From: Lachnospiraceae bacterium
Lineage (GTDB): Bacteria; Bacillota; Clostridia; Lachnospirales; Lachnospiraceae
Direction of reading: 5' to 3'
Assembly: GCA_017553505.1 (NCBI GenBank)
Contig: JAFZLD010000027.1
Location: 1 to 33,118, forward strand
DNA: 33,118 nt
Shown here: positions 1 through 25,856 of the stretch, one piece after another
How positions within the stretch are numbered: position 1 is the first letter of the stretch
Layout: each line of letters begins with the position of its first letter
The notes under the pieces: generated by a model
The model's input: only the letters and a program-made list of their open reading frames with translations
The model's database searches: none
What the model was told of the DNA's origin: nothing
Translations under genes and position numbers: made by a program

Positions 1-174
1 AACCTTGACAACGTTGTAGAGAACACCACAAGTGCTGAATCTGCTATCCGTGATACAGATATGGCTACTCAGATGGTAAGCTACTCTAACAACAACATCC
101 TTGCACAGGCAGGTCAGGCTATGCTTGCACAAGCTAACCAGTCTAACCAGGGTGTACTTAGCTTACTTGGCTAA
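1..174 (+). CDS. Flagellin, C-terminal fragment (cut by window edge)
   Basis: The first base is in frame with the conserved flagellin C terminus. The 57 visible residues run from [18 protein letters not shown] to [11 protein letters not shown] and stop at TAA. They correspond to the end of the D1 helix and the D0 helix that packs in the filament core. They match the ends of the complete copies downstream almost exactly; the LLG ending is shared with flagellin 4. The start and variable domain lie outside the window, so this is a truncated view and not a pseudogene call. A GC-rich hairpin without U-tract and a short spacer link it to the next flagellin. Confidence 0.95.
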
Positions 175-203
175 CACTAATTGAACTTAATACCTTATTA
201 ATC

Positions 204-233
204 GCACTGCCTCCTCGCACGGGGAGGTAGTGC
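204..233 (+). other. Intercistronic hairpin without U-tract
   Basis: GCACTGCCTCC pairs with GGAGGTAGTGC (11 bp with one G-U pair) around a short loop. It is followed by AAAACAAAA rather than a T-run, so it is not a canonical intrinsic terminator. With no promoter visible before the next gene, it is best read as a stabilising, processing or partial-readthrough hairpin inside a flagellin operon. Confidence 0.75.
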
Positions 234-243
234 AAAACAAAAG

Positions 244-283
244 GCGACATGGAAGTCGTTAACTAACATATTTTCAAGGAGGA
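244..283 (+). promoter_or_regulatory. Flagellin 1 leader: CsrA-type hairpin plus SD
   Basis: A small hairpin (stem GCGAC at 244-248 with GTCGT at 255-259) presents ATGGAA in its loop. The segment ACATGGAAGT (247-256) matches the high-affinity CsrA consensus ACANGGANGU. The SD CAAGGAGG (275-282) supplies a second GGA about 27 nt downstream. In Bacillus subtilis hag, CsrA binds two such sites, one over the SD, and FliW relieves it. Binding here is inferred. Confidence 0.6.
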
Positions 284-290
284 AAATAAT

Positions 291-1607
291 ATGGTAGTAC
301 AGCACAATTTAACAGCAATGAACTCCAACAGAATGTTGGGCATTACTCAGAAGTCACAGGCTAAGGCTACTGAAAAGTTATCATCCGGTTACAAGATTAA
401 CCGTGCAGCAGATGACGCAGCAGGCCTTTCCATCAGTGAAAAGATGCGTAAGCAGATCAGAGGTCTTACACAGGCTTCCGCTAACGCTCAGGACGGTATC
501 TCAGCAGTTCAGACAGCAGAAGGTGCACTTACAGAAGTACACGATATGCTTCAGAGAATGAACGAACTTGCAGTTAAGGCTGCAAACGGCACTAACAGTA
601 AAGACGACCGTGATTACATTCAGGCAGAAGTTAACCAGCTTGTAACTGAAATCGACCGTGTATCCACCACCACAAAGTTCAATGAAACATATTTGTTAAA
701 GGGTACCAACAATGATGGTACTGTAGGTGGACTTACATTCGGAACAGCAAAATCAGGTTTGTCACTTGCAAATGATTTTGATTCTGACGGTATTCAGACA
801 CTTACAGCTACAACTGCATCTGACGTTACATTTGGAACCGGCGCAGGAAAGTCAACTTTCACCGAAACGACTACCGGCACAGGAACTGCAACAGCTAGTA
901 CTTTCAAAACCCACACTGTAAAGATTGGTGCAGACGCTACAGAAATGAATTATGTTCTTGTTTCCGATTTCACAGCAGGTGACTTACGTCCTACCACTAT
1001 TGATGACGTAATTAAGGGCTTTGAAGACAATTCAGCAAATACCAAGTACAAAGCATTTAAGGATGTTGCTTCTATGGAAGCTGCAATTAAAGCTGACTGG
1101 GGCAAGGACATTAAAGATGTTGACGTTACGACCACTCTTACAAGTGGTGCTGTAAGTAAGGCAGAAGTTAAGCTCACTGCTTTTTCAGATCTTAACAAGG
1201 GCCTTGATGTAAGCTTACACGTAGGCGCTGACTCTACTAAGGACAACAAGATTGGCTTAACAATCGAAATGATGTCTGCTAGAGGACTTGGAGTTAACGG
1301 TATCAGAGTTGATGGTTCTACCGATACCAATGCTACAAAGTCAATCGACACCATCAAGGCTGCAATCCAGAAGGTATCCGAGCAGAGATCTGCACTCGGT
1401 GCTGTTCAGAACAGACTTGACCACACCATCAACAACCTTGACAACGTTGTAGAGAACACCACAAGTGCTGAATCCGCAATCCGTGATACGGATATGGCTA
1501 AGCAGATGGTTAGCTACTCTAACAACAACATCCTTGCTCAGGCAGGTCAGGCAATGCTTGCACAGGCTAACCAGTCCAATCAGGGCGTTTTAAGCTTACT
1601 CAGATAA
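291..1607 (+). CDS. fliC: Flagellin 1
   Basis: This encodes the 438-residue major filament subunit, exported by the flagellar type III system and polymerised outside the cell. Residues 1-138 are the conserved D0/D1 half (MVVQHNLTAMNSNRMLG start; LQRMNELAV and IQAEV in D1). Residues 139-295 are the variable exposed domain. Residues 296-438 are the conserved C-terminal half ending QGVLSLLR. The start follows CAAGGAGGAAAATAAT at good SD spacing and is shared by every copy. No SigD promoter is visible in the 116-nt spacer upstream, so it is probably cotranscribed with the partial flagellin and with flagellin 2. Family assignment is certain; which copy dominates the filament cannot be told. Confidence 0.97.
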   Translation: MVVQHNLTAMNSNRMLGITQKSQAKATEKLSSGYKINRAADDAAGLSISEKMRKQIRGLTQASANAQDGISAVQTAEGALTEVHDMLQRMNELAVKAANGTNSKDDRDYIQAEVNQLVTEIDRVSTTTKFNETYLLKGTNNDGTVGGLTFGTAKSGLSLANDFDSDGIQTLTATTASDVTFGTGAGKSTFTETTTGTGTATASTFKTHTVKIGADATEMNYVLVSDFTAGDLRPTTIDDVIKGFEDNSANTKYKAFKDVASMEAAIKADWGKDIKDVDVTTTLTSGAVSKAEVKLTAFSDLNKGLDVSLHVGADSTKDNKIGLTIEMMSARGLGVNGIRVDGSTDTNATKSIDTIKAAIQKVSEQRSALGAVQNRLDHTINNLDNVVENTTSAESAIRDTDMAKQMVSYSNNNILAQAGQAMLAQANQSNQGVLSLLR

Positions 1608-1629
1608 GCCAAGTAAAATAGTACAAACA

Positions 1630-1658
1630 GCACTGCCTTCCTAATAGGAGGGCAGTGC
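1630..1658 (+). other. Intercistronic hairpin without U-tract
   Basis: GCACTGCCTTCC pairs with GGAGGGCAGTGC (one G-U pair) around TAATA. The downstream sequence AAATATTTAAAC is not a T-run. It is the same sequence family as the hairpin at 204-233 and occupies the same place between two flagellins that lack a promoter in the spacer. Confidence 0.75.
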
Positions 1659-1676
1659 AAATATTTAAACAATGAT

Positions 1677-1712
1677 GCGACATGGATGTCGTACATACAT
1701 TTTCAAGGAGGA
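1677..1712 (+). promoter_or_regulatory. Flagellin 2 leader: CsrA-type hairpin plus SD
   Basis: ACATGGATGT (1680-1689) is an exact match to the ACANGGANGU CsrA consensus and sits in a short hairpin closed by GCGAC and GTCGT. The SD CAAGGAGG (1704-1711) gives a second GGA. The layout is the same as in flagellins 1 and 4. Regulation by CsrA is inferred; no csrA or fliW gene lies in this window. Confidence 0.6.
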
Positions 1713-1719
1713 AAATAAT

Positions 1720-3015
1720 ATGGTAGTACAGCACAATTTAACAGCAATGAACTCCAACAGAATGTTGGGCATTACTCAGAAAACACAGGCTAAGGCAACT
1801 GAAAAGTTATCATCCGGTTACAAGATTAACCGTGCAGCGGATGACGCAGCAGGCCTTTCCATCAGTGAAAAGATGCGTAAGCAGATCAGAGGTCTTACAC
1901 AGGCTTCCGCTAACGCTCAGGACGGTATTTCAGCAGTACAGACAGCAGAAGGTGCACTCACAGAAGTACACGATATGCTTCAGAGAATGAACGAGCTTGC
2001 AGTTAAGGCAGCAAACGGAACCAATTCCGAAGACGACCGTAATTACATCCAGGCAGAAGTAAACCAGCTTGTAACCGAAATCGATCGTGTATCTACAACA
2101 ACCAAGTTCAACGAGACTTATTTGTTAAAGGGTACTAACGGAACAGAAGTAGGAAAACTTTCATATGCTAAAGCAGCTGCAGCATTAAAGGCAACAGGAT
2201 CTTCTAACAGTGAAGCTGCTAATATTGCGGATGATAAGTTTCAGGCTAATCAGGGTACTGTATCTGTAAAGGGTTCAGCACAGAGTTCTGCTACCAACGT
2301 TTCAGGCAGTGATGCTACTCATGGCACATATAAAAAGACTCAGGTAGTTATTAACGGAACTACTTACACTTACCTTTCAGACTTTACCAAGGGCACAGCT
2401 ACTGATGCAGTTGGATTTGACGATTTTGTTAAGTCATACAAGTCAAGTAACAGCGCTGAAAAGGTTGCAACAGATCTTAGCACACTTGGAAACCTTATTA
2501 AGGCAAACAATACTGCAGATCTCAAGGAAGCAAGCGTTAGTCTTGTAAAAGACGGCGATGCAAATAAGCTTGAAGTTAAGCTTTCTGCATTTGCAGATCT
2601 TAACAAGGGTCTTGATGTAAGCTTACATGTAGGCGCTGATTCTACTAAGGATAACAAGATTGGTCTTACAATCGAAATGATGTCCGCAAGAGGACTTGGC
2701 GTTAACGGTCTTGAAGTAAGTGGTTCAGACGACAGCAAGGCAACAGCAGCTATCGATACCATCAAGGCTGCAATCCAGAAGGTATCCGAGCAGAGATCGG
2801 CTCTCGGTGCTGTTCAGAACAGACTTGACCACACCATCAACAACCTTGACAACGTTGTAGAGAACACCACCAGCGCTGAGTCTGCTATCCGTGATACAGA
2901 TATGGCTAAGCAGATGGTAAGCTACTCTAACAACAACATCCTTGCACAGGCAGGTCAGGCAATGCTTGCACAGGCTAACCAGTCTAACCAGGGCGTACTC
3001 AGCTTACTCAGATAA
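1720..3015 (+). CDS. fliC: Flagellin 2
   Basis: This is a flagellin of 431 residues from the ATG at 1720. An in-frame ATG at 1672 would add 16 residues (MMRHGCRTYIFKEENN), but these are translated leader hairpin and SD, so the downstream start, identical to the other copies, is chosen. Conserved D0/D1 spans residues 1-137 and the C-terminal half about 290-431, ending LLR. The central domain (about 138-289) differs from flagellin 1 but keeps a GTTYTYLSDF strand motif and a FDDFVKSY helix. It ends the apparent three-gene transcript, since a good intrinsic terminator follows at 3031. Its C terminus ([18 protein letters not shown]) is identical to that of flagellin 1, suggesting recent duplication or gene conversion. 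Confidence 0.97.
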   Translation: MVVQHNLTAMNSNRMLGITQKTQAKATEKLSSGYKINRAADDAAGLSISEKMRKQIRGLTQASANAQDGISAVQTAEGALTEVHDMLQRMNELAVKAANGTNSEDDRNYIQAEVNQLVTEIDRVSTTTKFNETYLLKGTNGTEVGKLSYAKAAAALKATGSSNSEAANIADDKFQANQGTVSVKGSAQSSATNVSGSDATHGTYKKTQVVINGTTYTYLSDFTKGTATDAVGFDDFVKSYKSSNSAEKVATDLSTLGNLIKANNTADLKEASVSLVKDGDANKLEVKLSAFADLNKGLDVSLHVGADSTKDNKIGLTIEMMSARGLGVNGLEVSGSDDSKATAAIDTIKAAIQKVSEQRSALGAVQNRLDHTINNLDNVVENTTSAESAIRDTDMAKQMVSYSNNNILAQAGQAMLAQANQSNQGVLSLLR

Positions 3016-3030
3016 GTATTACCAACAATC

Positions 3031-3065
3031 AGGGCTCTCCCATCCGGGAGGGCCCTATTTTTGTT
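3031..3065 (+). terminator. Intrinsic terminator after flagellin 2
   Basis: AGGGCTCTCCC pairs with GGGAGGGCCCT around ATCC (one wobble pair), followed by ATTTTTGTTT. It closes the first flagellin transcript. Confidence 0.9.
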
Positions 3066-3337
3066 TATATTTACATTTGCTTTTGACTAAAGATAAATTT
3101 GCTCGGGGTGAAAATAAATAAAATTGTGCACAATTGGAAACTGTTATTTGTGAATTAGTACCATTGTCCTATTTTTTCTTTTGCGCGATACTGTGTGAGG
3201 ACAGAAAAAGCATGCTTATATCGGTTATGAGGTGGAACGGGACATATTCTTGGATTCAATGTTGCGCGAGCTGATACCGGAAGTCCGGTATGGCGATAAG
3301 GAAGCCGCGCGTTTTTATTTCAAGGAGGAAATAACAA
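3066..3337 (+). promoter_or_regulatory. Flagellin 3 upstream region and structured leader
   Basis: No gene is seen in this gap of about 320 bp between flagellins 2 and 3. No perfect SigD promoter is present. The segment TTTTTTCTTTTGCGCGATACT (starting at 3172) resembles the spacer and -10 of the flagellin 5-7 promoters but lacks TAAA and appears about 2 bp short. Further down, ATACCGG pairs with CCGGTAT (3274-3291) around AAGT. This may be enclosed by a GCGCG/CGCGC helix ending near 3315, just before the SD CAAGGAGG. This leader differs from those of all other copies. Confidence 0.45.
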
Positions 3338-4573
3338 ATGGTAGTACAGCACAATTTAACAGCAATGAATTCAAACAGAATGTTAGGAATCACTTCTAAC
3401 ACTCAGGCTAAGGCAACAGAGAAGCTTTCATCCGGTTACAAGATTAACCGTGCGGCTGACGATGCTGCAGGCCTTTCAATCAGTGAAAAAATGCGTAAGC
3501 AGATCAGAGGTCTTTCACAGGCATCTGCTAACGCTCAGGACGGAATTTCCGCAGTACAGACAGCAGAAGGTGCACTCACAGAAGTACACGATATGCTTCA
3601 GAGAATGAACGAACTTGCAGTTAAGGCCGCTAACGGCACTAACAGCAAGGATGACCGTGATTACATCCAGGCTGAGGTTGATCAGCTTGTAACAGAGGTT
3701 GACCGTGTAGCTACTACTACAAAGTTCAACGAGTCTTATTTACTTAAGGGTACCAACGGTAATGAAGCAGGTAAGCTTACATATGCTACAGCTAAGGCTG
3801 CTCTCGGCAATGATGCTCCCGATTTTGATGCAGACGGCGTTGCTAAGATTACCGCAGCAAACGGTTCAAGCAAGACTAACGCTAGTGCTCCTACAGGTGC
3901 ATACGATTCTGCAAGCATCGAAGTAAACGGTAAGACCTACCAGTACATCAAGAACTACGATGCAAGCGCTACAGGCGTTACAAAGAGCATCTCTGATGTA
4001 GCTAAGGATTTAACTACAGGTGACACCAAGGCATTCACAAGCCTTTCAGAACTTGCAACCGCTATTAAGCGTGACAACGGTGAGAGCCTTAAGGGTGTTG
4101 AGGTTTCTGAAGATTCAGACGGCAAGCTTACTGCTAAGATGACCGCATTCTCAGACCTTAACAAGAGTCTTGACATGAGCCTTCATGTAGGCGCTGATTC
4201 CACCAAGGACAACAAGATCGATCTTGCTATCGAGAACATGTCTGCAAGAGGACTTGGTATTAACGGCCTTAAGGTTTATGGCGACAATGACGATAACGCA
4301 ACATCTGCTATCGACACCATCAAGTCAGCTATCCAGAAGGTATCTGAGCAGAGATCTGCTCTCGGTGCAGTTCAGAACAGACTTGATCACACCATTAACA
4401 ATCTTGATAACGTTGTAGAGAACACCACACGTGCTGAGTCTGCTATCCGTGATACAGATATGGCTACTCAGATGGTAAGCTACTCTAACAACAACATCCT
4501 TGCTCAGGCAGGACAGGCAATGCTTGCACAGGCTAACCAGTCTAACCAGGGCGTACTCAGCTTACTTAGATAA
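3338..4573 (+). CDS. fliC: Flagellin 3
   Basis: This is a 411-residue flagellin with conserved D0/D1 (1-137), a variable domain (about 138-269) and a conserved C-terminal part ending LLR. It is the most divergent group A copy in the normally invariant second half: KSLDMSLHV for KGLDVSLHV, IDLAIENMSARGLGINGL for IGLTIEMMSARGLGVNG, and NTTRAES for NTTSAES. The central domain keeps the VNGKTYQYIKNY strand motif and a TSLSELATAIKRDNG helix. It has its own terminator and an atypical leader with a weak promoter match, so it may be expressed differently from the other copies. That is inference from the upstream sequence, not a measured property. Confidence 0.97.
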   Translation: MVVQHNLTAMNSNRMLGITSNTQAKATEKLSSGYKINRAADDAAGLSISEKMRKQIRGLSQASANAQDGISAVQTAEGALTEVHDMLQRMNELAVKAANGTNSKDDRDYIQAEVDQLVTEVDRVATTTKFNESYLLKGTNGNEAGKLTYATAKAALGNDAPDFDADGVAKITAANGSSKTNASAPTGAYDSASIEVNGKTYQYIKNYDASATGVTKSISDVAKDLTTGDTKAFTSLSELATAIKRDNGESLKGVEVSEDSDGKLTAKMTAFSDLNKSLDMSLHVGADSTKDNKIDLAIENMSARGLGINGLKVYGDNDDNATSAIDTIKSAIQKVSEQRSALGAVQNRLDHTINNLDNVVENTTRAESAIRDTDMATQMVSYSNNNILAQAGQAMLAQANQSNQGVLSLLR

Positions 4574-4592
4574 GTATTAATACAGTATTTCC

Positions 4593-4629
4593 AAAAAAAT
4601 GGGCTCTCCCCGTTGGGAGAGCTTTTTTT
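4593..4629 (+). terminator. Intrinsic terminator after flagellin 3
   Basis: GCTCTCCC pairs perfectly with GGGAGAGC around CGTT, followed by seven T. An upstream A-run makes it potentially bidirectional. Confidence 0.92.
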
Positions 4630-4686
4630 GTGCTTTTTGAGATGTTTTTTTGAACTAATATTAATAGAAAATTATCAATTATGTGG

Positions 4687-4714
4687 TAAAGTGTACTTAC
4701 ACCTGTTCCGATAT
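4687..4714 (+). promoter_or_regulatory. SigD (sigma-28) promoter of flagellin 4
   Basis: TAAA at 4687-4690 is followed after 16 nt by TCCGATAT at 4707-4714. The known SigD consensus is TAAA-N15-GCCGATAT. It lies about 120 nt upstream of the flagellin 4 start. Confidence 0.8.
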
Positions 4715-4791
4715 ATATTGTGACAGGTAATTTGTCAGGGTTTCTTTGGCGCGCGCGTGCGAGCCGGCAGAGGGCCCCAAACAAGTAAACA

Positions 4792-4828
4792 GCGACATGG
4801 AAGTCGCGTATTTCTATTTTCAAGGAGG
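4792..4828 (+). promoter_or_regulatory. Flagellin 4 leader: CsrA-type hairpin plus SD
   Basis: This is the cleanest copy of the leader hairpin. GCGAC (4792-4796) pairs perfectly with GTCGC (4803-4807) around the loop ATGGAA. ACATGGAAGT (4795-4804) matches the CsrA consensus, and CAAGGAGG (4821-4828) is the SD and second GGA. Confidence 0.65.
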
Positions 4829-4836
4829 AAAAAAAT

Positions 4837-6066
4837 ATGGTAGTACAACACAACTTAACAGCGATGAACTCTAACAGAATGTTAGGCATCACATCCAAGT
4901 CACAGGCAAAGGCAACAGAGAAGTTATCATCCGGTTATAAGATTAACCGTGCAGCAGATGATGCAGCAGGTTTATCAATTTCCGAAAAGATGCGTAAGCA
5001 GATCAGAGGTCTTACACAGGCTTCCGCTAACGCACAGGACGGTATCTCCGCAGTTCAGACAGCTGAAGGCGCACTCACAGAAGTACACGATATGCTTCAG
5101 AGAATGAACGAACTTGCAGTTAAGGCAGCAAACGGAACCAATTCCGAAGACGACAGATCTTACATCCAGGCTGAGGTTAATCAGCTTGTAACCGAAATTG
5201 ACCGTGTAGCTACAACTACAAAGTTCAACGAGACATACCTCTTAAAGGGTACCAACGGAACCGAACCCGGTAAGCTTACCTACGCTACTGCGGATGCATT
5301 AACAGGTATTACCGGTGCTAACCTTGTTGCAGGACAGGGCGAAGAAAAGTTATCATTTAATGTAGCTACCGCTGCTAACCAGGATGGAATAGGAACTGCT
5401 AAGTCAGGTTCTATCCAGATCGGTACAGTAACTTATAACTTCGTTAATGTTACATCATTGGAAGATGGTAAGACAGTAGACGATTACAAGGCAAAGTATA
5501 CTGATACTGCTACAGCAAAGTATTTCTTTGATGCCAATGAAATGGCTAGCGCTATTCAGGCTGACAACGGCAAGGATCTTAAGAACGTAACTGCTTCTTT
5601 CGATGCAACCGGAAACAAGATGAATCTTACAGTTTCTGCATTCGCAGATCTTAACAAGGGTCTTGATGTTAGCTTACATGTAGGCGCTGACTCTACCAAG
5701 GACAACAAGATTGGTCTTACAATCGAAATGATGTCCGCTAGAGGACTTGGCGTTAACGGTATCAGAGTTGACGGCGCGGACGATGTTAATGCTACAAAGG
5801 CAATCGACACCATCAAGGCTGCAATCCAGAAGGTATCCGAGCAGAGATCTGCTCTCGGTGCTGTTCAGAACAGACTTGACCACACCATCAACAACCTCGA
5901 CAACGTAGTTGAGAACACCACAAGCGCTGAATCTGCAATCCGTGATACGGATATGGCAACTCAGATGGTTAGCTACAGCAACAACAACATCCTTGCTCAG
6001 GCAGGACAGGCAATGCTTGCACAGGCTAATCAGTCTAACCAGGGCGTACTTAGCTTACTTGGCTAA
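4837..6066 (+). CDS. fliC: Flagellin 4
   Basis: This 409-residue flagellin is the shortest complete copy. D0/D1 occupies residues 1-137, the variable domain about 138-267 and the conserved C-terminal part 268-409, ending LLG like the partial copy at the window start. The central domain has an IGTVTYNFVNV strand followed by DANEMASAIQADNGKDLKNV, the same arrangement as in the other copies. It is a single-gene unit with its own SigD promoter, CsrA-like leader hairpin and terminator. This is the clearest example of independent control in group A. Confidence 0.97.
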   Translation: MVVQHNLTAMNSNRMLGITSKSQAKATEKLSSGYKINRAADDAAGLSISEKMRKQIRGLTQASANAQDGISAVQTAEGALTEVHDMLQRMNELAVKAANGTNSEDDRSYIQAEVNQLVTEIDRVATTTKFNETYLLKGTNGTEPGKLTYATADALTGITGANLVAGQGEEKLSFNVATAANQDGIGTAKSGSIQIGTVTYNFVNVTSLEDGKTVDDYKAKYTDTATAKYFFDANEMASAIQADNGKDLKNVTASFDATGNKMNLTVSAFADLNKGLDVSLHVGADSTKDNKIGLTIEMMSARGLGVNGIRVDGADDVNATKAIDTIKAAIQKVSEQRSALGAVQNRLDHTINNLDNVVENTTSAESAIRDTDMATQMVSYSNNNILAQAGQAMLAQANQSNQGVLSLLG

Positions 6067-6120
6067 TTACCTCTTAATCGCTGACGCGGCTTAGCCGCAA
6101 GGTTCAATTTAGTAATACGA

Positions 6121-6150
6121 AACCGCTCCTCGCACGGGGAGCGGTTTTTG
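6121..6150 (+). terminator. Intrinsic terminator after flagellin 4
   Basis: AACCGCTCC pairs with GGAGCGGTT around TCGCACGG, ending in TTTTT. A smaller GCGGC/GCCGC hairpin precedes it near 6086. Confidence 0.9.
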
Positions 6151-6191
6151 CGTGTCTGAAAGCTTGGCCAAAGAAAATTCTGAAAAAGGGG

Positions 6192-6218
6192 TAAAGTTTT
6201 TTCTTTTGCCTCCGATAT
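6192..6218 (+). promoter_or_regulatory. SigD (sigma-28) promoter of flagellin 5
   Basis: TAAA (6192-6195), a 15-nt pyrimidine-rich spacer, then TCCGATAT (6211-6218). Only the first base of the -10 differs from GCCGATAT. The whole element is repeated almost unchanged before flagellin 7. Confidence 0.9.
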
Positions 6219-6272
6219 AACATGTAGAGGTATTAAATCTGACACATTAACTTGAAAATATTTAGCAGGGAA

Positions 6273-6306
6273 GCATCGGCAGGATGCCACCGGATTTCAC
6301 AGGAGG
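6273..6306 (+). promoter_or_regulatory. Flagellin 5 leader hairpin and SD
   Basis: GCATC (6273-6277) can pair with GATGC (6283-6287) around GGCAG. Alternatively GGC pairs with GCC (6278-6288), exposing AGGAT in the loop. The SD is ACAGGAGG at 6299-6306. This is the group B form of the flagellin leader, with GGA motifs in or near hairpin loops. Confidence 0.5.
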
Positions 6307-6315
6307 AATTTTCAC

Positions 6316-7653
6316 ATGGTAGTACAGCACAATTTGACAGCAATGAACTCTAACAGAATGTTAGGAATTACAACTAAGTCACAGGCAAAAGCAACTGAAA
6401 AGCTTTCATCAGGTTACAAGATTAATCGTGCGGCAGATGATGCAGCAGGCTTATCAATTTCCGAAAAAATGAGAAAGCAGATCAGAGGTCTTACACAGGC
6501 TTCTTCAAACGCACAGGACGGTATCAGTGCAGTACAGACCGCAGAAGGTGCGCTTACAGAAGTACACGATATGCTTCAGCGTATGAACGAGCTTGCAGTT
6601 AAGGCAGCTAACGGCACCAACTCTAAAGATGACCGTGATTACATCCAGGCCGAAGTTGACCAGCTTGTAACCGAAATCGACCGTGTATCTACAACAACCA
6701 AGTTCAACGAGACTTACCTTTTAAAGGGTGACCATGGCGACGGCACAGGTGCACTTACTTGGAATACAGCCAATGATTTGGTTGGAGCTGCTTTCACCGG
6801 TTTATCATTTGATAGCGTTAACGGTGAGGCTGAGTTAACAATCAGTACGCTTACCAAGACAGATGCGATAAAGGGCGCAGATGATATGTATAATACTACC
6901 ACCGGCTTCACAGAGGGAACCAAGCCTTCTTACGAGAGAGCTGATGTAACGGTAGGCGATGTAAAGTATTCGTATATTACAAATATTAAAAACGGTACTG
7001 AAACAAAGGCTGCATCAGGTTCCGATCCCGCAGTTACTCAGGATGTTGTAGTAACATATGACAAAATCGTAAGCGAACTTACTGAGACCGGTAAGGCCGA
7101 TGAAGATACAAAATTCTTCGCATCCAAAGAAGAAATGCTTGCGGCAATTAAGAATGATATAAACGAAGCTGCTGACAAGAGTATTAAGTCTATCACCGCT
7201 AATGGCGACAAGATTAAGATTTCTGCTTTTGCAGACCTTAACAAGGGTCTTGATATCAGCCTTCATGTAGGTGCTGACTCTACCAAGGACAATAAGATTG
7301 GTCTTACAATCGAAATGATGTCCGCAAGAGGACTTGGCATCAACGGTATCAGAGTTGACGGCGATACAGATGCAAATGCAACTGCATCTATCGATGTAAT
7401 CAAAGCTGCAATTCAGAAGGTATCCGAGCAGAGATCTACACTCGGTGCTGTACAGAACAGACTTGAGCACACCATCGCTAACCTTGATAACATCGTTGAG
7501 AATACCCAGAGCGCAGAATCTGCAATTCGTGATACAGACATGGCTACTCAGATGGTTAAGTACTCGAACAATAATATTCTTGCTCAGGCAGGTCAGGCAA
7601 TGCTTTCACAGGCTAACCAGTCTAATCAGGGTGTATTGTCACTCCTTCAGTAA
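6316..7653 (+). CDS. fliC: Flagellin 5
   Basis: This 445-residue flagellin, the longest in the array, belongs to group B: KGDHGDGTGAL after D1, RLEHTIANLDNIVENTQSAES and QMVKYSNNN near the end, and [16 protein letters not shown] as terminus. The variable domain spans about 139-303 and includes a VGDVKYSYITNI strand, a YDKIVSELTETG helix and FFASKEEMLAAIKND. It has its own SigD promoter and a terminator that also serves the converging minus-strand gene downstream. It shares its last 140 residues almost exactly with flagellin 6, although a two-gene minus-strand module separates them. Confidence 0.97.
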   Translation: MVVQHNLTAMNSNRMLGITTKSQAKATEKLSSGYKINRAADDAAGLSISEKMRKQIRGLTQASSNAQDGISAVQTAEGALTEVHDMLQRMNELAVKAANGTNSKDDRDYIQAEVDQLVTEIDRVSTTTKFNETYLLKGDHGDGTGALTWNTANDLVGAAFTGLSFDSVNGEAELTISTLTKTDAIKGADDMYNTTTGFTEGTKPSYERADVTVGDVKYSYITNIKNGTETKAASGSDPAVTQDVVVTYDKIVSELTETGKADEDTKFFASKEEMLAAIKNDINEAADKSIKSITANGDKIKISAFADLNKGLDISLHVGADSTKDNKIGLTIEMMSARGLGINGIRVDGDTDANATASIDVIKAAIQKVSEQRSTLGAVQNRLEHTIANLDNIVENTQSAESAIRDTDMATQMVKYSNNNILAQAGQAMLSQANQSNQGVLSLLQ

Positions 7654-7697
7654 TATTTAATAGCTAACCCAAATCTTTCCATACACAACTCCTTTGA

Positions 7698-7727
7698 AAA
7701 GGCGCTCGGGATACCCCGGGCGCCTTT
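7698..7727 (+). terminator. Intrinsic terminator, probably bidirectional
   Basis: AAAGGCGCTCGGG pairs with CCCGGGCGCCTTT around ATAC (one wobble). A-runs and T-runs flank both arms, so it can end flagellin 5 on the plus strand and the MazF-like gene on the minus strand. Confidence 0.85.
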
Positions 7728-7748
7728 GACTTATGAAGTATTATGTGA

Positions 7749-8045
7749 TTACACGTAGTCGAAGAGAGATTGGATTATATCAACAATCTGTATCAGACCG
7801 GACAAAGGAACACGTCCCTTCGAAGAAAAACGCCTCACGTTCAAATCAAACATGTGAAGGCTGTCGCAACGTACGAAGCCGGTTACAGACTCAGTGTTGA
7901 CGGGGAAGCTTAATACAGAGCCGTTATCTGCAGAAAGAATCGGGCAGGCTAAGATGTGATTGCTAAGGTTATAAGACGATTTACTCACTACCAAAAGCGG
8001 GTACTTGACATCGCTTATCTTAATAATGTCTCCCTGTTCTACCAT
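7749..8045 (-). CDS. MazF/PemK-like toxin-family protein
   Basis: This 98-residue protein has the MazF/PemK fold signature: EQGDIIKI at residues 3-10, YPLLVVSKSSYN (15-26), ACPILSADNG (33-42) and a C-terminal VRCDSLHMFDLNVRRF block (58-73). The family are ribosome-independent RNases that act as toxins. Here the usual Arg before the PALV strand is replaced by Lys14-Tyr15, and the PIT/S Thr is Leu37 followed by Ser38. The protein is also shorter than typical 110-120 residue members. Activity is therefore uncertain. Its start overlaps the end of the upstream Xre gene by 7 nt, giving the antitoxin-then-toxin order of a type II module. It converges on flagellin 5 across a shared terminator. Confidence 0.72.
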   Translation of the reverse strand: MVEQGDIIKISDVKYPLLVVSKSSYNLSNHILACPILSADNGSVLSFPVNTESVTGFVRCDSLHMFDLNVRRFSSKGRVPLSGLIQIVDIIQSLFDYV

Positions 8046-8497
8046 ATTTCATCCCCCTGAGGCTCGCCGAAATCTATTTCCTCGGAGCCGACTATCGGTC
8101 TTCCCGTAAGCTCGGCATACTCTTCCAAAGAACGATGCTTGAAGGTGAATCCGCGCTTAAGCAATTCTTTAATCTGTTCATCTGACATAAATTCGATAGC
8201 ACTGAGATTCAATGTAAGTTCCTCCTTATATCTTGATAAACGATTTGAAGCATCGCTTGTACTCTCTGTATCTATAAAAAAATCGGACTCGGAAACGCCG
8301 AAATAACCGGCCAAAGCAGTGATAGACTTAGCGCGGGGAACGGAATTGCCGTTAAGCCAGTCACATAAAGTCGTATATTTAATGCCTAAATCGCTGCTGA
8401 GCTTACGTCTCGATATGTTACGATTCTTCATCATACGAGACAGATTAACTGAAATAATATAGTTACACTTCGGGGTGTTGGTGTCGGTATTGTGCAT
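8039..8497 (-). CDS. Xre-family HTH regulator, probable antitoxin
   Basis: This is a 152-residue protein. Residues about 17-71 form a helix-turn-helix of the Xre/Cro type (SRRKLSSDLGIKYTTLCDWLNG). The C-terminal 50 residues are acidic (EYAELTGRPIVGSEEIDFGEP), as in antitoxin tails that wrap a partner. The start follows GAGGAG with 5-nt spacing. A perfect inverted repeat covers its promoter, suggesting autorepression. The gene is translationally coupled to the MazF-like gene by a 7-nt overlap. Pairing MazF with an Xre partner rather than MazE is less usual. It could also be a stand-alone regulator with a repurposed partner. Confidence 0.75.
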   Translation of the reverse strand: MHNTDTNTPKCNYIISVNLSRMMKNRNISRRKLSSDLGIKYTTLCDWLNGNSVPRAKSITALAGYFGVSESDFFIDTESTSDASNRLSRYKEELTLNLSAIEFMSDEQIKELLKRGFTFKHRSLEEYAELTGRPIVGSEEIDFGEPQGDEIW

Positions 8498-8511
8498 ATG
8501 AACTCCTCAAA

Positions 8512-8557
8512 ATTACGATTATATCGTAATAGTACGATATAATGGGCGAAAATGCAA
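8512..8557 (-). promoter_or_regulatory. Xre/MazF-like promoter with overlapping operator
   Basis: Read on the minus strand, TTGCAT (8557-8552) and TACTAT (8534-8529) are separated by 17 nt. A perfect inverted repeat, ATTACGAT-TAT-ATCGTAAT (8512-8530), overlaps the -10. A further TACGATAT half-site lies next to it (8533-8540). This is the expected geometry for autorepression by the Xre protein. Confidence 0.7.
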
Positions 8558-8594
8558 GTTTTTTTCCCTCTTTTACAAATTTACAGAAAAAGGG

Positions 8595-8621
8595 TAAAGT
8601 TTTTCTTTTTACGTCCGATAT
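8595..8621 (+). promoter_or_regulatory. SigD (sigma-28) promoter of flagellin 6
   Basis: TAAA (8595-8598), 15 nt, TCCGATAT (8614-8621). It is divergent from the Xre promoter, about 40 bp away. Confidence 0.9.
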
Positions 8622-8666
8622 AGTTAATAGAGTTACAAAAACAAACACAAAACTTTGAAATATTTA

Positions 8667-8707
8667 GCAGGATGCATCGGCAGGATGCCACCTTAATTCA
8701 CAGGAGG
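8667..8707 (+). promoter_or_regulatory. Flagellin 6 leader with twin GCAGGATGC motifs and SD
   Basis: GCAGGATGC occurs twice (8667-8675 and 8680-8688), offset by 13 nt, followed by the SD ACAGGAGG. GCATC (8674-8678) pairs with GATGC (8684-8688) around GGCAG. The alternative GGC-AGGAT-GCC hairpin (8679-8689) would expose GGA. The arrangement suits a two-site RNA-binding dimer such as CsrA. Confidence 0.5.
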
Positions 8708-8715
8708 AAAATTAC

Positions 8716-10029
8716 ATGGTAGTACAGCACAATTTGACAGCAATGAACTCTAACAGAATGTTAGGCATTACAACTAAGTCACAGGCAAAAGCAACTGAAA
8801 AGTTGTCATCAGGTTACAAGATTAACCGTGCAGCAGATGATGCAGCAGGATTATCAATTTCAGAAAAAATGCGTAAGCAGATCAGAGGTCTTACACAGGC
8901 TTCTTCAAACGCACAGGACGGTATCTCTGCAGTGCAGACAGCAGAAGGTGCGCTTACAGAAGTACACGATATGCTTCAGAGAATGAACGAGCTTGCAGTT
9001 AAGGCAGCTAACGGAACCAACTCCGAAGACGACAGAGCATACATCCAGGCAGAAGTTGATCAGCTCGTAACAGAAATCGACCGTGTATCTACAACAACCA
9101 AGTTCAACGAAACTTACCTTTTAAAGGGTGACCACGGCGACGGAACAGGAACACTTAGCTTTAAGGATGCTTCTAAGGCAGTTGCTTCATCCAACACTAC
9201 AGATATTTTTAATTCTGACGGTGTTTACACTCAGGCAGCAGGTGCAACCACTGATGACGTGGATGTAGCGGCAGCAACCACCGGCATTACCGAAACACCC
9301 GGTAGCGGAAGCGGAACAGCAGCAGCAAGTACTTATGATACTGCATCAGTAGTTGTAGGCGGAAATACCTATTATCTCGTTTCTGACTTCAAGGTTGGTG
9401 TTGACACAAACGGAAACAAGTATTCCACAACACTTGATGATGTTGTTAAGGGATTAAATACCAAAGACACAGAGGCTACACATAAATACTACGGAAGCAT
9501 CAAGGAAATCGAGCAGGCAATCAAAGAAGACTCCAAGGGCGAGTTTAAGGCAGTAAACGTTACCGCTGATGATGCAGGCGCAATCTCCGCAAAGATTACA
9601 GCTTTCTCAGACCTTAACAAGGGTCTTGATATAAGCCTCCATGTAGGTGCTGACTCTACAAAGGATAACAAGATTGGTCTTACAATCGAAATGATGTCCG
9701 CAAAGGGTCTTGGAATCAACGGTCTTCTTGTAAACGGTGCAACCGATACAAACGCAACAGCATCTATCGATGTAATCAAGGCAGCTATCCAGAAGGTATC
9801 CGAGCAGAGATCTACACTCGGTGCTGTACAGAACAGACTTGAGCACACCATCGCTAACCTTGATAACATCGTTGAGAACACCCAGAGCGCTGAATCTGCA
9901 ATTCGTGATACAGACATGGCTACTCAGATGGTTAAGTACTCGAACAATAACATTCTTGCTCAGGCAGGTCAGGCAATGCTTTCACAGGCTAACCAGAGTA
10001 ACCAGGGTGTATTGTCACTCCTTCAGTAA
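8716..10029 (+). CDS. fliC: Flagellin 6
   Basis: This 437-residue group B flagellin has conserved D0/D1 (1-138), a variable domain (about 139-295) rich in Thr, Ala and Gly, and a conserved C-terminal part ending LLQ. The central domain carries VGGNTYYLVSDF, a TTLDDVVKGLN helix and YYGSIKEIEQAIKED, closely matching flagellin 7. One conserved Arg in MMSARGLG is Lys here (MMSAKGLG). It is a single-gene unit with its own SigD promoter and terminator. Its leader lies beside the divergent Xre promoter, so the two could influence each other. Confidence 0.97.
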   Translation: MVVQHNLTAMNSNRMLGITTKSQAKATEKLSSGYKINRAADDAAGLSISEKMRKQIRGLTQASSNAQDGISAVQTAEGALTEVHDMLQRMNELAVKAANGTNSEDDRAYIQAEVDQLVTEIDRVSTTTKFNETYLLKGDHGDGTGTLSFKDASKAVASSNTTDIFNSDGVYTQAAGATTDDVDVAAATTGITETPGSGSGTAAASTYDTASVVVGGNTYYLVSDFKVGVDTNGNKYSTTLDDVVKGLNTKDTEATHKYYGSIKEIEQAIKEDSKGEFKAVNVTADDAGAISAKITAFSDLNKGLDISLHVGADSTKDNKIGLTIEMMSAKGLGINGLLVNGATDTNATASIDVIKAAIQKVSEQRSTLGAVQNRLEHTIANLDNIVENTQSAESAIRDTDMATQMVKYSNNNILAQAGQAMLSQANQSNQGVLSLLQ

Positions 10030-10073
10030 TATTAATCTGTTAAACCAAATCTTTCCATACATACTCCTTTCAC

Positions 10074-10103
10074 AAGGCGCTTCGGATAACCGAGGCGCCT
10101 TTT
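10074..10103 (+). terminator. Intrinsic terminator after flagellin 6
   Basis: AAGGCGCTTCGG pairs with CCGAGGCGCCTT around ATAA (one wobble), ending in a short T-run. Confidence 0.88.
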
Positions 10104-10146
10104 ACTATATTTTGCGGAAATTTTGCAAAAAAATACAAAATAGGGG

Positions 10147-10173
10147 TAAAGTTTTTTCTTTTGCCTCCGATAT
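10147..10173 (+). promoter_or_regulatory. SigD (sigma-28) promoter of flagellin 7
   Basis: TAAA (10147-10150), 15 nt, TCCGATAT (10166-10173). It is identical to the flagellin 5 promoter from the GGGG before TAAA through TCCGATATA. Confidence 0.9.
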
Positions 10174-10221
10174 AGTTAATAGAGGTGTTAAAAAACAAAC
10201 AATTTGGGAAAAAGATAGATA

Positions 10222-10259
10222 GCAGGACGCGTCGGCAGGACGCCGTTTTCAAAGGAGGA
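10222..10259 (+). promoter_or_regulatory. Flagellin 7 leader with twin GCAGGACGC motifs and SD
   Basis: GCAGGACGC occurs at 10222-10230 and 10235-10243. GCGTC (10229-10233) pairs with GACGC (10239-10243). Compared with flagellins 5 and 6 (GCATC with GATGC), both arms changed together, a compensatory A-T to G-C swap that supports a real RNA hairpin. The SD is AAAGGAGG. Confidence 0.55.
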
Positions 10260-10264
10260 GAAAA

Positions 10265-11572
10265 ATGGTAGTACAGCACAATCTGACAGCAATGAACTCT
10301 AACAGAATGTTAGGTATCACAACAAAGTCTCAGGCTAAGGCAACAGAAAAGCTTTCATCCGGTTACAAGATTAACCGTGCGGCTGATGATGCGGCAGGCC
10401 TTTCCATAAGTGAAAAGATGAGAAAGCAGATCAGAGGTCTTTCACAGGCTTCCATGAATGCTCAGGACGGTATTTCTTCCGTACAGACAGCAGAAGGTGC
10501 ACTTACAGAAGTACACGACATGCTTCAGAGAATGAACGAACTTGCAGTTAAGGCAGCTAACGGAACCAACTCCGCTGACGACCGTCAGTACATCCAGGCA
10601 GAAGTAGATCAGCTTATCACCGAAATCGATCGTGTATCTACCACAACCAAGTTCAACGAAACATATCTTTTAAAGGGTGACCACGGTGACGGAACCGGTA
10701 CACTTAGCTATGAAAGTGCTACAAAGGCAGTTGATCCCAACGCAGCAGCAGGCGATGATTTGTTTGCAGCAGATAACGGAACATATAAGAAGGTTGGCGA
10801 AGGCAACAAGACTAACGGCGATATGGGTGATACAGGAATCACCGAGGCTACAGGAACCGGTACAGCAGCCAGCACATTTAAGACAGCATCTATCATAGTT
10901 GGTGGCGTTACATACAACCTCGTATCCGATTTTGTAGTTGGTAATGATGCATCCGGTACCAAGTATTCCACCACACTTGATGATATAGTTAAGGGATTAA
11001 ACAATACTTCAGGCAATGCTACCACCAAGTACGTAGGTAGCCTTAAAGATTTAGAAAGAGCTATCAAAGAGGCTTCCAAGGGCGAATTCAAGGAAGTAGC
11101 TCTTGACGCAGATGCAAACGGTAAACTTACCGCAGAGCTTATTGCTTTTGCAGATCTCAACAAGGGTCTTGATGTAAGCTTACACGTAGGCGCAGATTCA
11201 ACCAAGGATAACAAGATTGGTCTTACCATCGAAATGATGTCCGCAAGAGGTCTCGGAGTTAACGGCCTTCTTGTAAACGGCGCAACCGATGACAATGCAA
11301 CCAATTCAATCAATACAATCAAGTCGGCAATTCAGAAGGTATCCGAGCAGCGTTCCGCACTCGGTGCCGCACAGAACAGACTTGAGCACACCATCGCTAA
11401 CCTCGATAACATCGTTGAGAACACCACAAGTGCTGAATCCGCAATCCGTGATACAGACATGGCTAAGCAGATGGTTGAGTACTCGAACAATAACATTCTT
11501 GCTCAGGCAGGTCAGGCAATGCTTGCACAGGCTAACCAGTCTAACCAGGGTGTATTGTCACTCCTTCAGTAA
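10265..11572 (+). CDS. fliC: Flagellin 7
   Basis: This 435-residue flagellin is the last copy of the array. The D1 end and variable domain (about 139-293) match group B, especially flagellin 6 (KGDHGDGTGTLS, STTLDDIVKGLN). Its C-terminal part mixes both groups: RLEHTIANLDNIVEN and LLQ are group B, but [24 protein letters not shown] and MLAQANQ are group A. It also has unique changes (ASMNAQDGISSVQ; LGAAQNR; QMVEYSNNN). This mosaic suggests gene conversion between copies. It has its own SigD promoter, leader hairpin and terminator. Confidence 0.97.
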   Translation: MVVQHNLTAMNSNRMLGITTKSQAKATEKLSSGYKINRAADDAAGLSISEKMRKQIRGLSQASMNAQDGISSVQTAEGALTEVHDMLQRMNELAVKAANGTNSADDRQYIQAEVDQLITEIDRVSTTTKFNETYLLKGDHGDGTGTLSYESATKAVDPNAAAGDDLFAADNGTYKKVGEGNKTNGDMGDTGITEATGTGTAASTFKTASIIVGGVTYNLVSDFVVGNDASGTKYSTTLDDIVKGLNNTSGNATTKYVGSLKDLERAIKEASKGEFKEVALDADANGKLTAELIAFADLNKGLDVSLHVGADSTKDNKIGLTIEMMSARGLGVNGLLVNGATDDNATNSINTIKSAIQKVSEQRSALGAAQNRLEHTIANLDNIVENTTSAESAIRDTDMAKQMVEYSNNNILAQAGQAMLAQANQSNQGVLSLLQ

Positions 11573-11625
11573 TCAGGCCATAATTTCTAATCCTTATATA
11601 AGTAAGTCAGATGAGTGTTTGAGGC

Positions 11626-11656
11626 AGGCGCCCCGGAAGTCCGGGGCGCTTGTTTT
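11626..11656 (+). terminator. Intrinsic terminator after flagellin 7
   Basis: AGGCGCCCCGGA pairs with TCCGGGGCGCTT (one wobble), followed by GTTTTG. It closes the array. Confidence 0.87.
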
Positions 11657-11924
11657 GTGTTGGAAATTTGAACTATACAAGTTTACCGAAAAAGCGTCTG
11701 AATTTCTTGCGAAGTGGCTTGCTCGATGCTGATATTGCTCTCAACCATGCATCTTGACAATTTGGTAGAATTGACGGTTGTTTTTTCTTAAAACCTCAGT
11801 TAGCATTTAAGCATAAGTATATTTCTTGTGGTTTCTGCCACTATGGGTTAACCGTTTTCGGCTCCCGATGAAATCCCTGCTTTGGAACTAAATATAGGGA
11901 GCATCGGGCTCCCGAAGGAGAAGA
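11657..11924 (+). promoter_or_regulatory. Upstream region of the Rpn-type gene, with long hairpin
   Basis: No gene is seen here. A TTGACA at 11754-11759 has no matching -10 at 16-18 nt, so no promoter is called. Just before the start, CCCGATG (11864-11870) pairs with CATCGGG (11902-11908), and inside it TCCCT pairs with AGGGA. The 9-mer GGCTCCCGA occurs directly repeated at 11860-11868 and 11907-11915, the second copy running into the SD AAGGAG. This could be a translational control hairpin. Confidence 0.45.
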
Positions 11925-15620: not shown

Positions 15621-15719
15621 GAAAACAAAAAATAGGTAAATTATACCCTTTTTTAAATATTGTTTGCCCGGCGCGCAAAACGGATTTTGCACACCTATCA
15701 CGGAAGAAAGGAGGAGCTT

Positions 15720-25683: not shown

Positions 25684-25856
25684 AACGATTGCTGTGGCAT
25701 GATAGCTATGAAGCGTGAGGTTGCTGCATTCGGGAATACATAACCGCTTGCAGGTTTTCCGCGGAGCGAAAGTCATGTAAACTGACGACAAGTCACTGTA
25801 CAAAGCAACTGTCTATCAATAGGATAGAAACGACGTGCAAGTCGCTATCCCCGAGA

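What the first reader, a model, noticed from the sequence alone, without database searches (positions are those of the whole stretch)
1..11572. Eight flagellin genes in tandem with retained reading frames
Seven complete copies and one edge-cut copy follow each other with no frameshift or obvious decay. All keep intact D0/D1 ends, ribosome sites and, mostly, their own promoters and terminators. That argues for selection to keep several filament subunits, for example for antigenic variety, mixed filaments or growth-condition switching. The copy number is high even for bacteria with multiple flagellins.
Basis: partly seen in the sequence, partly recalled or inferred. Interest (0 to 1): 0.75.

Follow-up and report, generated by a model that had tools for sequence, protein, structure and literature searches.

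The report
Nine-gene flagellin array, shared RNA hairpins
A gut-type bacterium keeps nine side-by-side genes for its flagellar filament protein; their ends and, in most, an RNA control hairpin are conserved while the middle of each looks swapped out over time, which fits a way to vary the filament's surface under one shared control.

Summary
In detail: seven intact flagellin genes plus a tail. The window is a contig end. Contig C5 of the same genome ends with an exact 99-bp overlap of the window's first bases, giving a nine-copy array (A, B, 1-7) directly behind fliW-csrA-flaG-fliD-fliS-flgN, and eleven flagellins in the genome. A PemK/MazF-like toxin/HTH pair interrupts it. Ends are under purifying selection (dN/dS 0.03-0.20, 36 of 36 pairs).

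(1) Family-wide, flagellin leaders carry a GGA-loop hairpin before the ribosome site, with compensatory changes (67 of 140 fragments with all five pairs, 0-3 off register), the form of a CsrA site; canonical in five of nine copies here. (2) Against a relative, ends diverge modestly (dS 0.27-0.39, five slots) while middles are saturated (dS 1.4-2.0): middles were exchanged by recombination. Copy number is joint highest of 298 sampled family genomes, but 14-15-copy arrays are known elsewhere (PMC7175107). I read it as a co-regulated, surface-diversifying multi-flagellin array: a new variant of a known kind. CsrA binding and filament composition are untested.

The parts
1..174 (+). C-terminal tail of flagellin copy B; the rest is on contig C5 (L013:13484-14650)
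   Evidence: exact 99-bp overlap; Flagellin_C match
291..1607 (+). flagellin copy 1 (438 aa)
1720..3015 (+). flagellin copy 2 (431 aa from the conserved start)
3338..4573 (+). flagellin copy 3 (411 aa)
4837..6066 (+). flagellin copy 4 (409 aa)
6316..7653 (+). flagellin copy 5 (445 aa)
8716..10029 (+). flagellin copy 6 (437 aa)
10265..11572 (+). flagellin copy 7 (435 aa)
10679..11143 (+). variable middle of copy 7 (example): 5 of 140 positions invariant between residues 141 and 280 across the nine copies
   Evidence: bounds computed from the 138/142-residue ends used
243..260 (+). leader hairpin SL1 of copy 1, loop AUGGAA (CsrA-like)
269..288 (+). leader hairpin SL2 of copy 1: ribosome site AAGGAG in a six-base loop
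   Evidence: arms read
1676..1693 (+). SL1 of copy 2
3292..3306 (+). SL1-like of copy 3, non-canonical (9-nt loop)
4792..4807 (+). SL1 of copy 4
6278..6288 (+). short SL1 variant GGC-AGGAU-GCC of copy 5 (the best fold prefers another pairing)
8679..8689 (+). short SL1 variant of copy 6 (the best fold prefers another pairing)
10233..10245 (+). short SL1 variant of copy 7 (the best fold prefers another pairing)
4687..4714 (+). sigma-28-like promoter of copy 4 (spacing 16)
6192..6218 (+). sigma-28-like promoter of copy 5
8595..8621 (+). sigma-28-like promoter of copy 6
10147..10173 (+). sigma-28-like promoter of copy 7
3031..3056 (+). terminator-like hairpin after copy 2
   Evidence: scan total not above chance
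4601..4624 (+). terminator-like hairpin after copy 3
   Evidence: scan total not above chance
7749..8045 (-). PemK/MazF-like gene between copies 5 and 6
   Evidence: Pfam PF02452, 23.9 bits, cut-off 23.1
8039..8497 (-). HTH (Cro/C1) gene, probable partner of the toxin-like gene
   Evidence: Pfam PF13443

Best explanation
This is the window part of a nine-copy flagellin array in a Lachnospiraceae genome, lying directly behind fliW, csrA, flaG, fliD, fliS and flgN. All copies share the polymerising ends (D0/D1) and differ in the middle, which in flagellins forms the filament's outer surface (family knowledge). Shown by sequence: intact copies under purifying selection; slots shared with a related species; family-wide flagellin leaders with covarying GGA-loop hairpins, canonical in five of the nine copies; middles whose genealogy is older than their flanks. 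Inferred: sigma-28 starts transcription at 4, 5, 6, 7 and perhaps A and 3, with B, 1, 2 read through from A; CsrA binds the leader hairpin and the ribosome site and blocks translation; FliW, released as flagellin is exported, removes CsrA, so total flagellin is held by one homeostat whatever the mixture; several copies are made together and give mixed filaments; the near-identical ends serve as homology arms through which middles are exchanged, renewing the surface seen by phages, protists or host antibodies.
For: Array and context; one csrA in the genome. Selection: dN/dS 0.03-0.20 in 36 of 36 pairs. Leader: a GGA-loop hairpin of at least 5 pairs in 111 of 160 distinct flagellin leaders, against 2.8% of dinucleotide shuffles and 47 of 668 non-flagellin leaders (an over-count: at least 4 of the 25 printed are flagellin leaders read from an upstream start). 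With the GGA chosen by sequence only, 67 of 140 fragments form all five pairs (mean 4.5, maximum 13 in 500 arm shuffles). In 30 of 43 genus fragments, picked by eye: 86% of cells paired, covariation 0.666 against 0.265 shuffled. CsrA's SELEX consensus RUACARGGAUGU with mostly six-base loops, and CsrA blocking of the hag ribosome site with FliW as antagonist, are in PMC7652899 (passages); copy A's leader contains ACAAGGAUGU. Middles: flanking DNA 89-92% identical and contiguous into slots A, B, 1; ends dS 0.27-0.39 and six neighbouring genes 0.21-0.74, middles 1.4-2.0 in slots A, B, 1, 5, 7. Promoter-like sites: 4 of 9, shuffles mean 0.31.
Against: No binding, expression or filament data. Canonical loops are clear in five of nine copies (A, B, 1, 2, 4); copies 5-7 have 3-4-bp variants that lose to another pairing in the best fold (z -1.95, -0.72, -1.25), and copy 3's leader folds no better than shuffles (z 0.03). 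SL2 covariation is weaker (49 of 145 complete stems against 17.4 in shuffles, maximum 29); the ribosome-site hairpin is absent from the best fold of copies 6 and 7 and from the centroid of 4. No sigma-28-like site before B, 1, 2. No donor of an exchanged middle was found: for A, B, 1, 4 and 5 the listed best matches are 34-41% identical (fetched loci only). dS is saturated in the middles and their alignment is uncertain. Only one relative gives slots A, B, 1, and its assembly is fragmented. Two well-assembled genomes of the genus show only two flagellins here, so a large array is dispensable.
Confidence: 0.62

Rival explanations
1. One-at-a-time antigenic variation: copies are expressed alternately, through a switch or by gene conversion into an expression site.
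For: Variable middles between conserved ends; mosaic ends (copy B's N end is closest to copy 2, dS 0.26, its C end to copy A, 0.39).
Against: No inverted repeats flanking a promoter in window 1-12000 (five pairs, all within the coding motif around GATGTAAGCTTACA); no silent cassettes lacking start or ribosome site among the nine; four copies have their own sigma-28-like promoter.
Confidence: 0.12
2. Specialised subunits: each copy builds a particular filament segment or serves a particular medium, as in other multi-flagellin bacteria.
For: Two subclasses (A-4 and 5-7) differ in ends, in the start of the middle and in leader type; copies 2 and 6 keep recognisable middles in G11 (78%, 61%) and copy 7 in G002 (67%).
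Against: Slots A, B, 1 and 5 do not keep their middle between species (31-38% identity), which a slot-specific role would oppose.
Confidence: 0.3
3. Gene dosage or neutral duplication; the copies are redundant.
For: Near-identical ends; unequal exchange is easy (the relative has one gene where the window has 5-TA-6); some genomes of the genus have only two copies here.
Against: All copies intact, old (end dS 0.25-1.26) and under purifying selection.
Confidence: 0.1
4. The leader hairpins are not CsrA sites but another RNA element (processing, stability, another binding protein).
For: No binding data; many stems have five or more pairs whereas most SELEX hairpins had four or fewer (PMC7652899); some were also picked up as terminator-like.
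Against: Covarying stem around a GGA loop, csrA and fliW in the same cluster, known hag and flaA precedents.
Confidence: 0.15
5. Assembly artefact inflating or collapsing copies.
For: Contig break inside copy B on the array's longest exact repeat; in 8 of 14 genus genomes with this FliS the contig ends within 3.3 kb behind it.
Against: All nine differ by synonymous distance of at least 0.25 in their ends; G017 has ten N ends in one contig, the last copy cut by the contig's edge.
Confidence: 0.04

Closest known systems
Tandem flagellin arrays of magnetotactic cocci MO-1 (14) and MC-1 (15) (PMC7175107, passages read)
   Same: Large tandem array; a flgKL-fliW-flaG-fliD-fliS cluster with a flagellin; all 14 expressed in MO-1
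   Different: Sheathed flagellar bundles of magnetotactic cocci; there most copies are apart from that cluster; the passages read do not describe a leader hairpin or slot-wise exchange of middles
Roseburia/Eubacterium flagellins and the flgM-flgN/fliC locus (PMC3720852, passages read)
   Same: Several fliC genes, similar gene cluster with csrA, sigma-28 promoters, MVVQHNL start
   Different: No nine-copy array and no leader sites in the passages shown (12 of 19 places); CsrA is mentioned as a possible regulator
B. subtilis hag leader with CsrA-FliW-Hag partner switch (PMC7652899, passages) and C. jejuni flaA leader (PMC4894983, passages)
   Same: GGA sites, one over the ribosome site in hag, two GGA stem-loops in flaA; fliW and csrA
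   Different: One or two flagellins; here the leader recurs on most copies of an array and varies by compensatory change
Dual-level flagellin diversity (Hu and Reeves, PMC7018530, passages)
   Same: Conserved ends, hypervariable region concluded to be acquired from outside the species; similar pattern in Clostridium group XIVa
   Different: There between strains and species; here within a syntenic array, slot by slot

Membership tests
Bacterial flagellin | Flagellin_N and Flagellin_C at the two ends | tested here: met
   NCBIfam and PDB matches for copy 7
Tandem multi-flagellin array | many intact flagellin genes in one direction at one locus | tested here: met
   nine copies, interrupted once by a two-gene minus-strand insert
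CsrA-FliW controlled flagellin leader (hag type) | GGA in a hairpin loop upstream of the ribosome site | tested here: inconclusive
   met in A, B, 1, 2, 4 and family-wide; weak variant in 5-7; not in canonical form in 3
CsrA-FliW controlled flagellin leader (hag type) | second site over the ribosome site | tested here: inconclusive
   AAGGAG loop in the best fold of A, B, 1, 2, 3, 4 (not in the centroid of 4), loop ACAGGA in 5, none in 6 and 7; weaker covariation
CsrA-FliW controlled flagellin leader (hag type) | fliW and csrA present | tested here: met
   PF02623, PF02599
CsrA-FliW controlled flagellin leader (hag type) | CsrA binds and represses | not testable with these tools
   needs gel shift and reporters
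Phase-variable flagellin (invertible promoter) | invertible promoter segment between inverted repeats | tested here: not met
   window 1-12000 only (arms of at least 18 nt)
Silent-cassette antigenic variation | donor copies without start or ribosome site | tested here: not met
   all nine copies have both

The most novel reading that the evidence does not exclude
The array is a modular surface-diversification locus: fixed slots, most with the same kind of covarying CsrA-type leader and all with the same polymerising ends, into which new outer domains recombine; any newcomer is at once under the shared CsrA-FliW homeostat. The covarying flagellin leader is a widespread RNA element of motile Lachnospiraceae that a search against Rfam 15 (gathering scores) does not report in this array.
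Probability: 0.4. Interest if true: 0.68.

Novelty: new variant of a known kind. Interest (0 to 1): 0.5.

Why it matters
Flagellins of motile Eubacterium and Roseburia are described as pro-inflammatory, and flagellins as TLR5 ligands (abstract starts of PMC3720852 and PMC13353774, listings). A locus that swaps outer domains while one post-transcriptional switch sets the total would explain how a motile anaerobe keeps many filament surfaces without upsetting assembly, and makes the question 'mixed filament or alternate filaments?' directly testable by mass spectrometry and reporter assays. The leader hairpin gives a simple marker for flagellin genes that may be under CsrA control across the family.

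Tried and rejected
Phase inversion was looked for and not found. Rfam at gathering threshold reports only two ribosomal-protein leaders in the window, nothing in the array. A sigma-70 scan of 1-12000 gave fewer sites than shuffles (5 against mean 18.0) and the terminator scan no more than shuffles (11 against 10.3). A glycosyltransferase module (DUF3880/Glyco_trans_1_2, plus a methyltransferase in one) sits inside the arrays of two relatives; the own genome has no match to one of these proteins (no positive control) or to PF12996 (rang in one of 14 controls), so it is not part of the explanation here. Donors of the middles were sought in the fetched loci only: only copies 2, 6 and 7 have a match above 42%. 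AlphaFold of copy 7 with 16 homologues (alignment A1) could not be run: machine full; the outer position of the middle therefore rests on flagellin family knowledge; PDB flagellin matches have best stretches at the N end, most ending near residue 140 and some reaching 276. Paper searches: none of the listings shows a nine-copy Lachnospiraceae array or a covarying CsrA leader in this family, but listings show only titles and abstract starts and the library holds only open-licence PMC papers. Passages of PMC7278147 were read and not used.

Dropped before counts: one search used 160 distinct of 183 leaders (duplicates removed); one search used 140 distinct fragments from the 156 of 160 leaders with a GGA outside the ribosome site; one search used 145 distinct of 159; one search used 30 of 43 genus fragments chosen by eye for the expected register, so it is biased and one search is the fair test; two of its 30 rows were shifted by MAFFT. 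In one search the slot pair 6/G002 (same gene as slot 5) is left out of the five-slot ranges (ends dS 0.27, middle 2.01).

Full report
WHAT WAS CHECKED. The window is bases 1-33118 of contig C3 (106,015 bp) of a 3.13-Mb genome in 28 contigs, 99.68% complete, contamination 3.51. It holds seven complete flagellin genes and a 3' tail, all on the plus strand, without internal stops. The tail belongs to a copy that begins on contig C5: the last 99 bases of C5 equal window 1-99. C5 brings flgK, flgL, fliW, csrA, flaG, fliD, fliS and flgN, then copies A and B. The array is thus A, B, 1-7. The same 99-mer also lies inside copy A, and the longest exact repeat among the nine genes is 119 bp between A and B; the contig break is on that repeat. 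Flagellin_C finds 13 places in the genome: A, B (split in two), 1-7, two distant flagellins on C25 and C22, and FlgL. So the genome has eleven flagellins, nine of them here. A hidden extra copy at the break is possible.

INTERRUPTION. Between copies 5 and 6 two minus-strand genes encode a PemK/MazF-like protein (23.9 bits, just above the cut-off of 23.1) and an HTH protein. In relative G002 a single flagellin gene stands where the window has 5-TA-6: its upstream side is contiguous with the 4/5 spacer and its downstream side with the 6/7 spacer; its leader is as close to that of 6 as to that of 5.

AGE AND SELECTION. Ends (138 N-terminal and 142 C-terminal codons) differ by synonymous distance 0.25-0.92 and 0.31-1.26 over 36 pairs; dN/dS is 0.03-0.11 and 0.07-0.20. 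Copies are old, intact and constrained. Nearest neighbours differ between the two ends of a gene (B: N end nearest copy 2, C end nearest copy A), a sign of recombination. Two subclasses exist: A-4 and 5-7, differing in the C end, in the first residues of the middle and in the leader.

SLOTS AND MIDDLES. Relative G002 is, by equal contig lengths, the sheep-rumen MAG RGIG6987. Its DNA is contiguous with the array at 89% over flgL-flgN and into the N end of A, at 92% over the A/B spacer and at 92% over the B/1 spacer. Within these slots N ends are 135/138, 135/138 and 136/138 identical and C ends 131/142, 131/142 and 137/142, while middles are 32%, 31% and 38%. Slot 5 is 31%; slot 7 is 67%. Synonymous distance of ends is 0.27-0.39 in slots A, B, 1, 5 and 7, of six neighbouring genes 0.21-0.74 (fliS and fliD highest, 0.74 and 0.62), but of middles 1.4-2.0 in all five slots. 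Positive selection in place raises amino-acid change, not synonymous change; so the middles have another, older genealogy, that is, they were exchanged by recombination. Even slot 7, whose middle is still 67% identical, has middle dS 1.42. Non-slot pairs are similar (39 pairs, mean pN 0.48, mean pS 0.72). In the isolate Lachnospiraceae bacterium G11 two middles match window copies at 78% (copy 2) and 61% (copy 6), so some types persist. Alignment of low-identity middles is uncertain, saturated dS is only a rough depth, and stronger codon bias in the ends could lower their dS somewhat.

LEADERS. Upstream of the ribosome site most copies carry a hairpin with GGA in the loop. Over 160 distinct leaders from 183 flagellin genes of the fetched family loci, 111 have such a hairpin of at least five pairs; dinucleotide shuffles give 2.8%; non-flagellin leaders 47 of 668, which includes at least four flagellin leaders. 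With the GGA picked by sequence alone, the loop NN-GGA-N gives 73% paired cells and 67 of 140 complete five-pair stems; registers off the symmetry axis give 0-3 complete stems at 30-44% paired, while shifted loops on the same axis (1/0, 3/2, 4/3) stay high as they share the stem. Every stem position uses several pair types. Shuffling arms among sequences gives 4.5 complete stems on average, at most 13 in 500; this does not correct for relatedness. The tool count on 30 of 43 genus fragments, chosen by eye, agrees (covariation 0.666 against 0.265 +/- 0.036; 0 of 500). RNA folding of the nine leaders shows SL1 in A, B, 1, 2 and 4 (in A and 2 the fold closes one more A-U pair, leaving a four-base loop with GGA) and, in A, B, 1, 2, 3 and 4, a second hairpin with the ribosome site AAGGAG in the loop; copy 5 has a similar one with loop ACAGGA; 6 and 7 have none. 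SL2's arms covary less (49 of 145 complete four-pair stems, shuffles mean 17.4, maximum 29), though its second pair is U-A in 67 and A-U in 59. [quoted passage not shown] C. jejuni flaA has two GGA stem-loops (PMC4894983, passages). The genome has one csrA, next to fliW. Exceptions: copy 3 has no good hairpin, copies 5-7 a short variant that the best fold does not choose.

PROMOTERS. Sigma-28-like sites with two mismatches precede 4, 5, 6 and 7 (4 of 9; shuffles mean 0.31, maximum 3); with three mismatches also A and 3, near chance; none B, 1, 2. T-tailed terminator-like hairpins follow 2 and 3, but the scan total is at chance. A-B-1-2 may be one transcript; this is inference.

HOW COMMON. The genus has 18 genomes here, 14 of them with the array-side FliS; in 8 of these 14 the contig ends within 3.3 kb behind FliS. 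Against this, G006 and G011, 98-99% complete, show two flagellins each in the 20 kb fetched. Among 298 family genomes of at least 90% completeness, 153 have a Flagellin_N match; G000 and G017 have 12 each, the next 11 and 10, FlgL included. Isolate B63 has 11 flagellins over about 31 kb, with other ORFs between them. A same-order genome has 15 matches. So the copy number is extreme for the family sample, not a record.

MECHANISM. Shown: array, constraint, covarying leaders, exchanged middles. Inferred: CsrA binding, FliW partner switch acting on the sum of copies, mixed filaments, and diversification of the filament surface as the benefit. The main rival is specialised subunits; both can be true, as 6 and 7 look more stable than A, B and 1.

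COMPARISON AND NOVELTY. Large tandem arrays (MO-1, MC-1), CsrA-FliW control of flagellin and hypervariable-region exchange are each known (PMC7175107, PMC7652899, PMC7018530; passages read). New here, as far as the listings of searches show, is the combination: an array in which most slots carry a covarying CsrA-type leader and whose middle domains are replaced slot by slot.

Noticed in passing
window:7749-8497: PemK/MazF-like and HTH genes on the minus strand between copies 5 and 6, not in the corresponding place of G002 where 5 and 6 are one gene; such a pair between direct repeats could guard the array against deletion (speculation).
   Followed up: partly
window:15660-17021 (likely start 15720): FliD-like gene (weak FliD_C, 2e-9) downstream of the array with a GGA-loop hairpin GCAAA-ACGGAU-UUUGC at about 15675-15690; similar hairpins appear before ORFs in L128, L131 and L138.
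   Followed up: partly
window:11925-12788: Rpn-family recombination-promoting nuclease/putative transposase just behind the array (TIGR01784, 76 bits).
   Followed up: no
L051:4872-8252 and L127:3203-7610: DUF3880/glycosyltransferase genes (and a methyltransferase in L127) inside the arrays of two relatives; no match found in the window's genome.
   Followed up: partly
L015:8121-10868 (contig C22): A lone 915-aa flagellin with a very long middle, outside the array; a similar-sized open frame (924) is in G013.
   Followed up: no
L014:7772-8962 (contig C25): A lone flagellin followed by a FliS-family gene; the second FliS type is found in most genomes of the genus.
   Followed up: no
L013:2651-6162: Three minus-strand genes that look like an ABC sugar transporter sit between flgK and flgL (named by eye, no family search).
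   Followed up: no
L131 and L129 (G006, G011): Genomes of the same genus with two flagellins at this locus; in G006 both are short (270 aa).
   Followed up: no
window:21798-21933 and 25700-25791: L10 leader and S10-Clostridia ribosomal-protein leaders (Rfam).
   Followed up: no
G037 (same order): 15 Flagellin_N matches in a 1.4-Mb, 69% complete genome.
   Followed up: no
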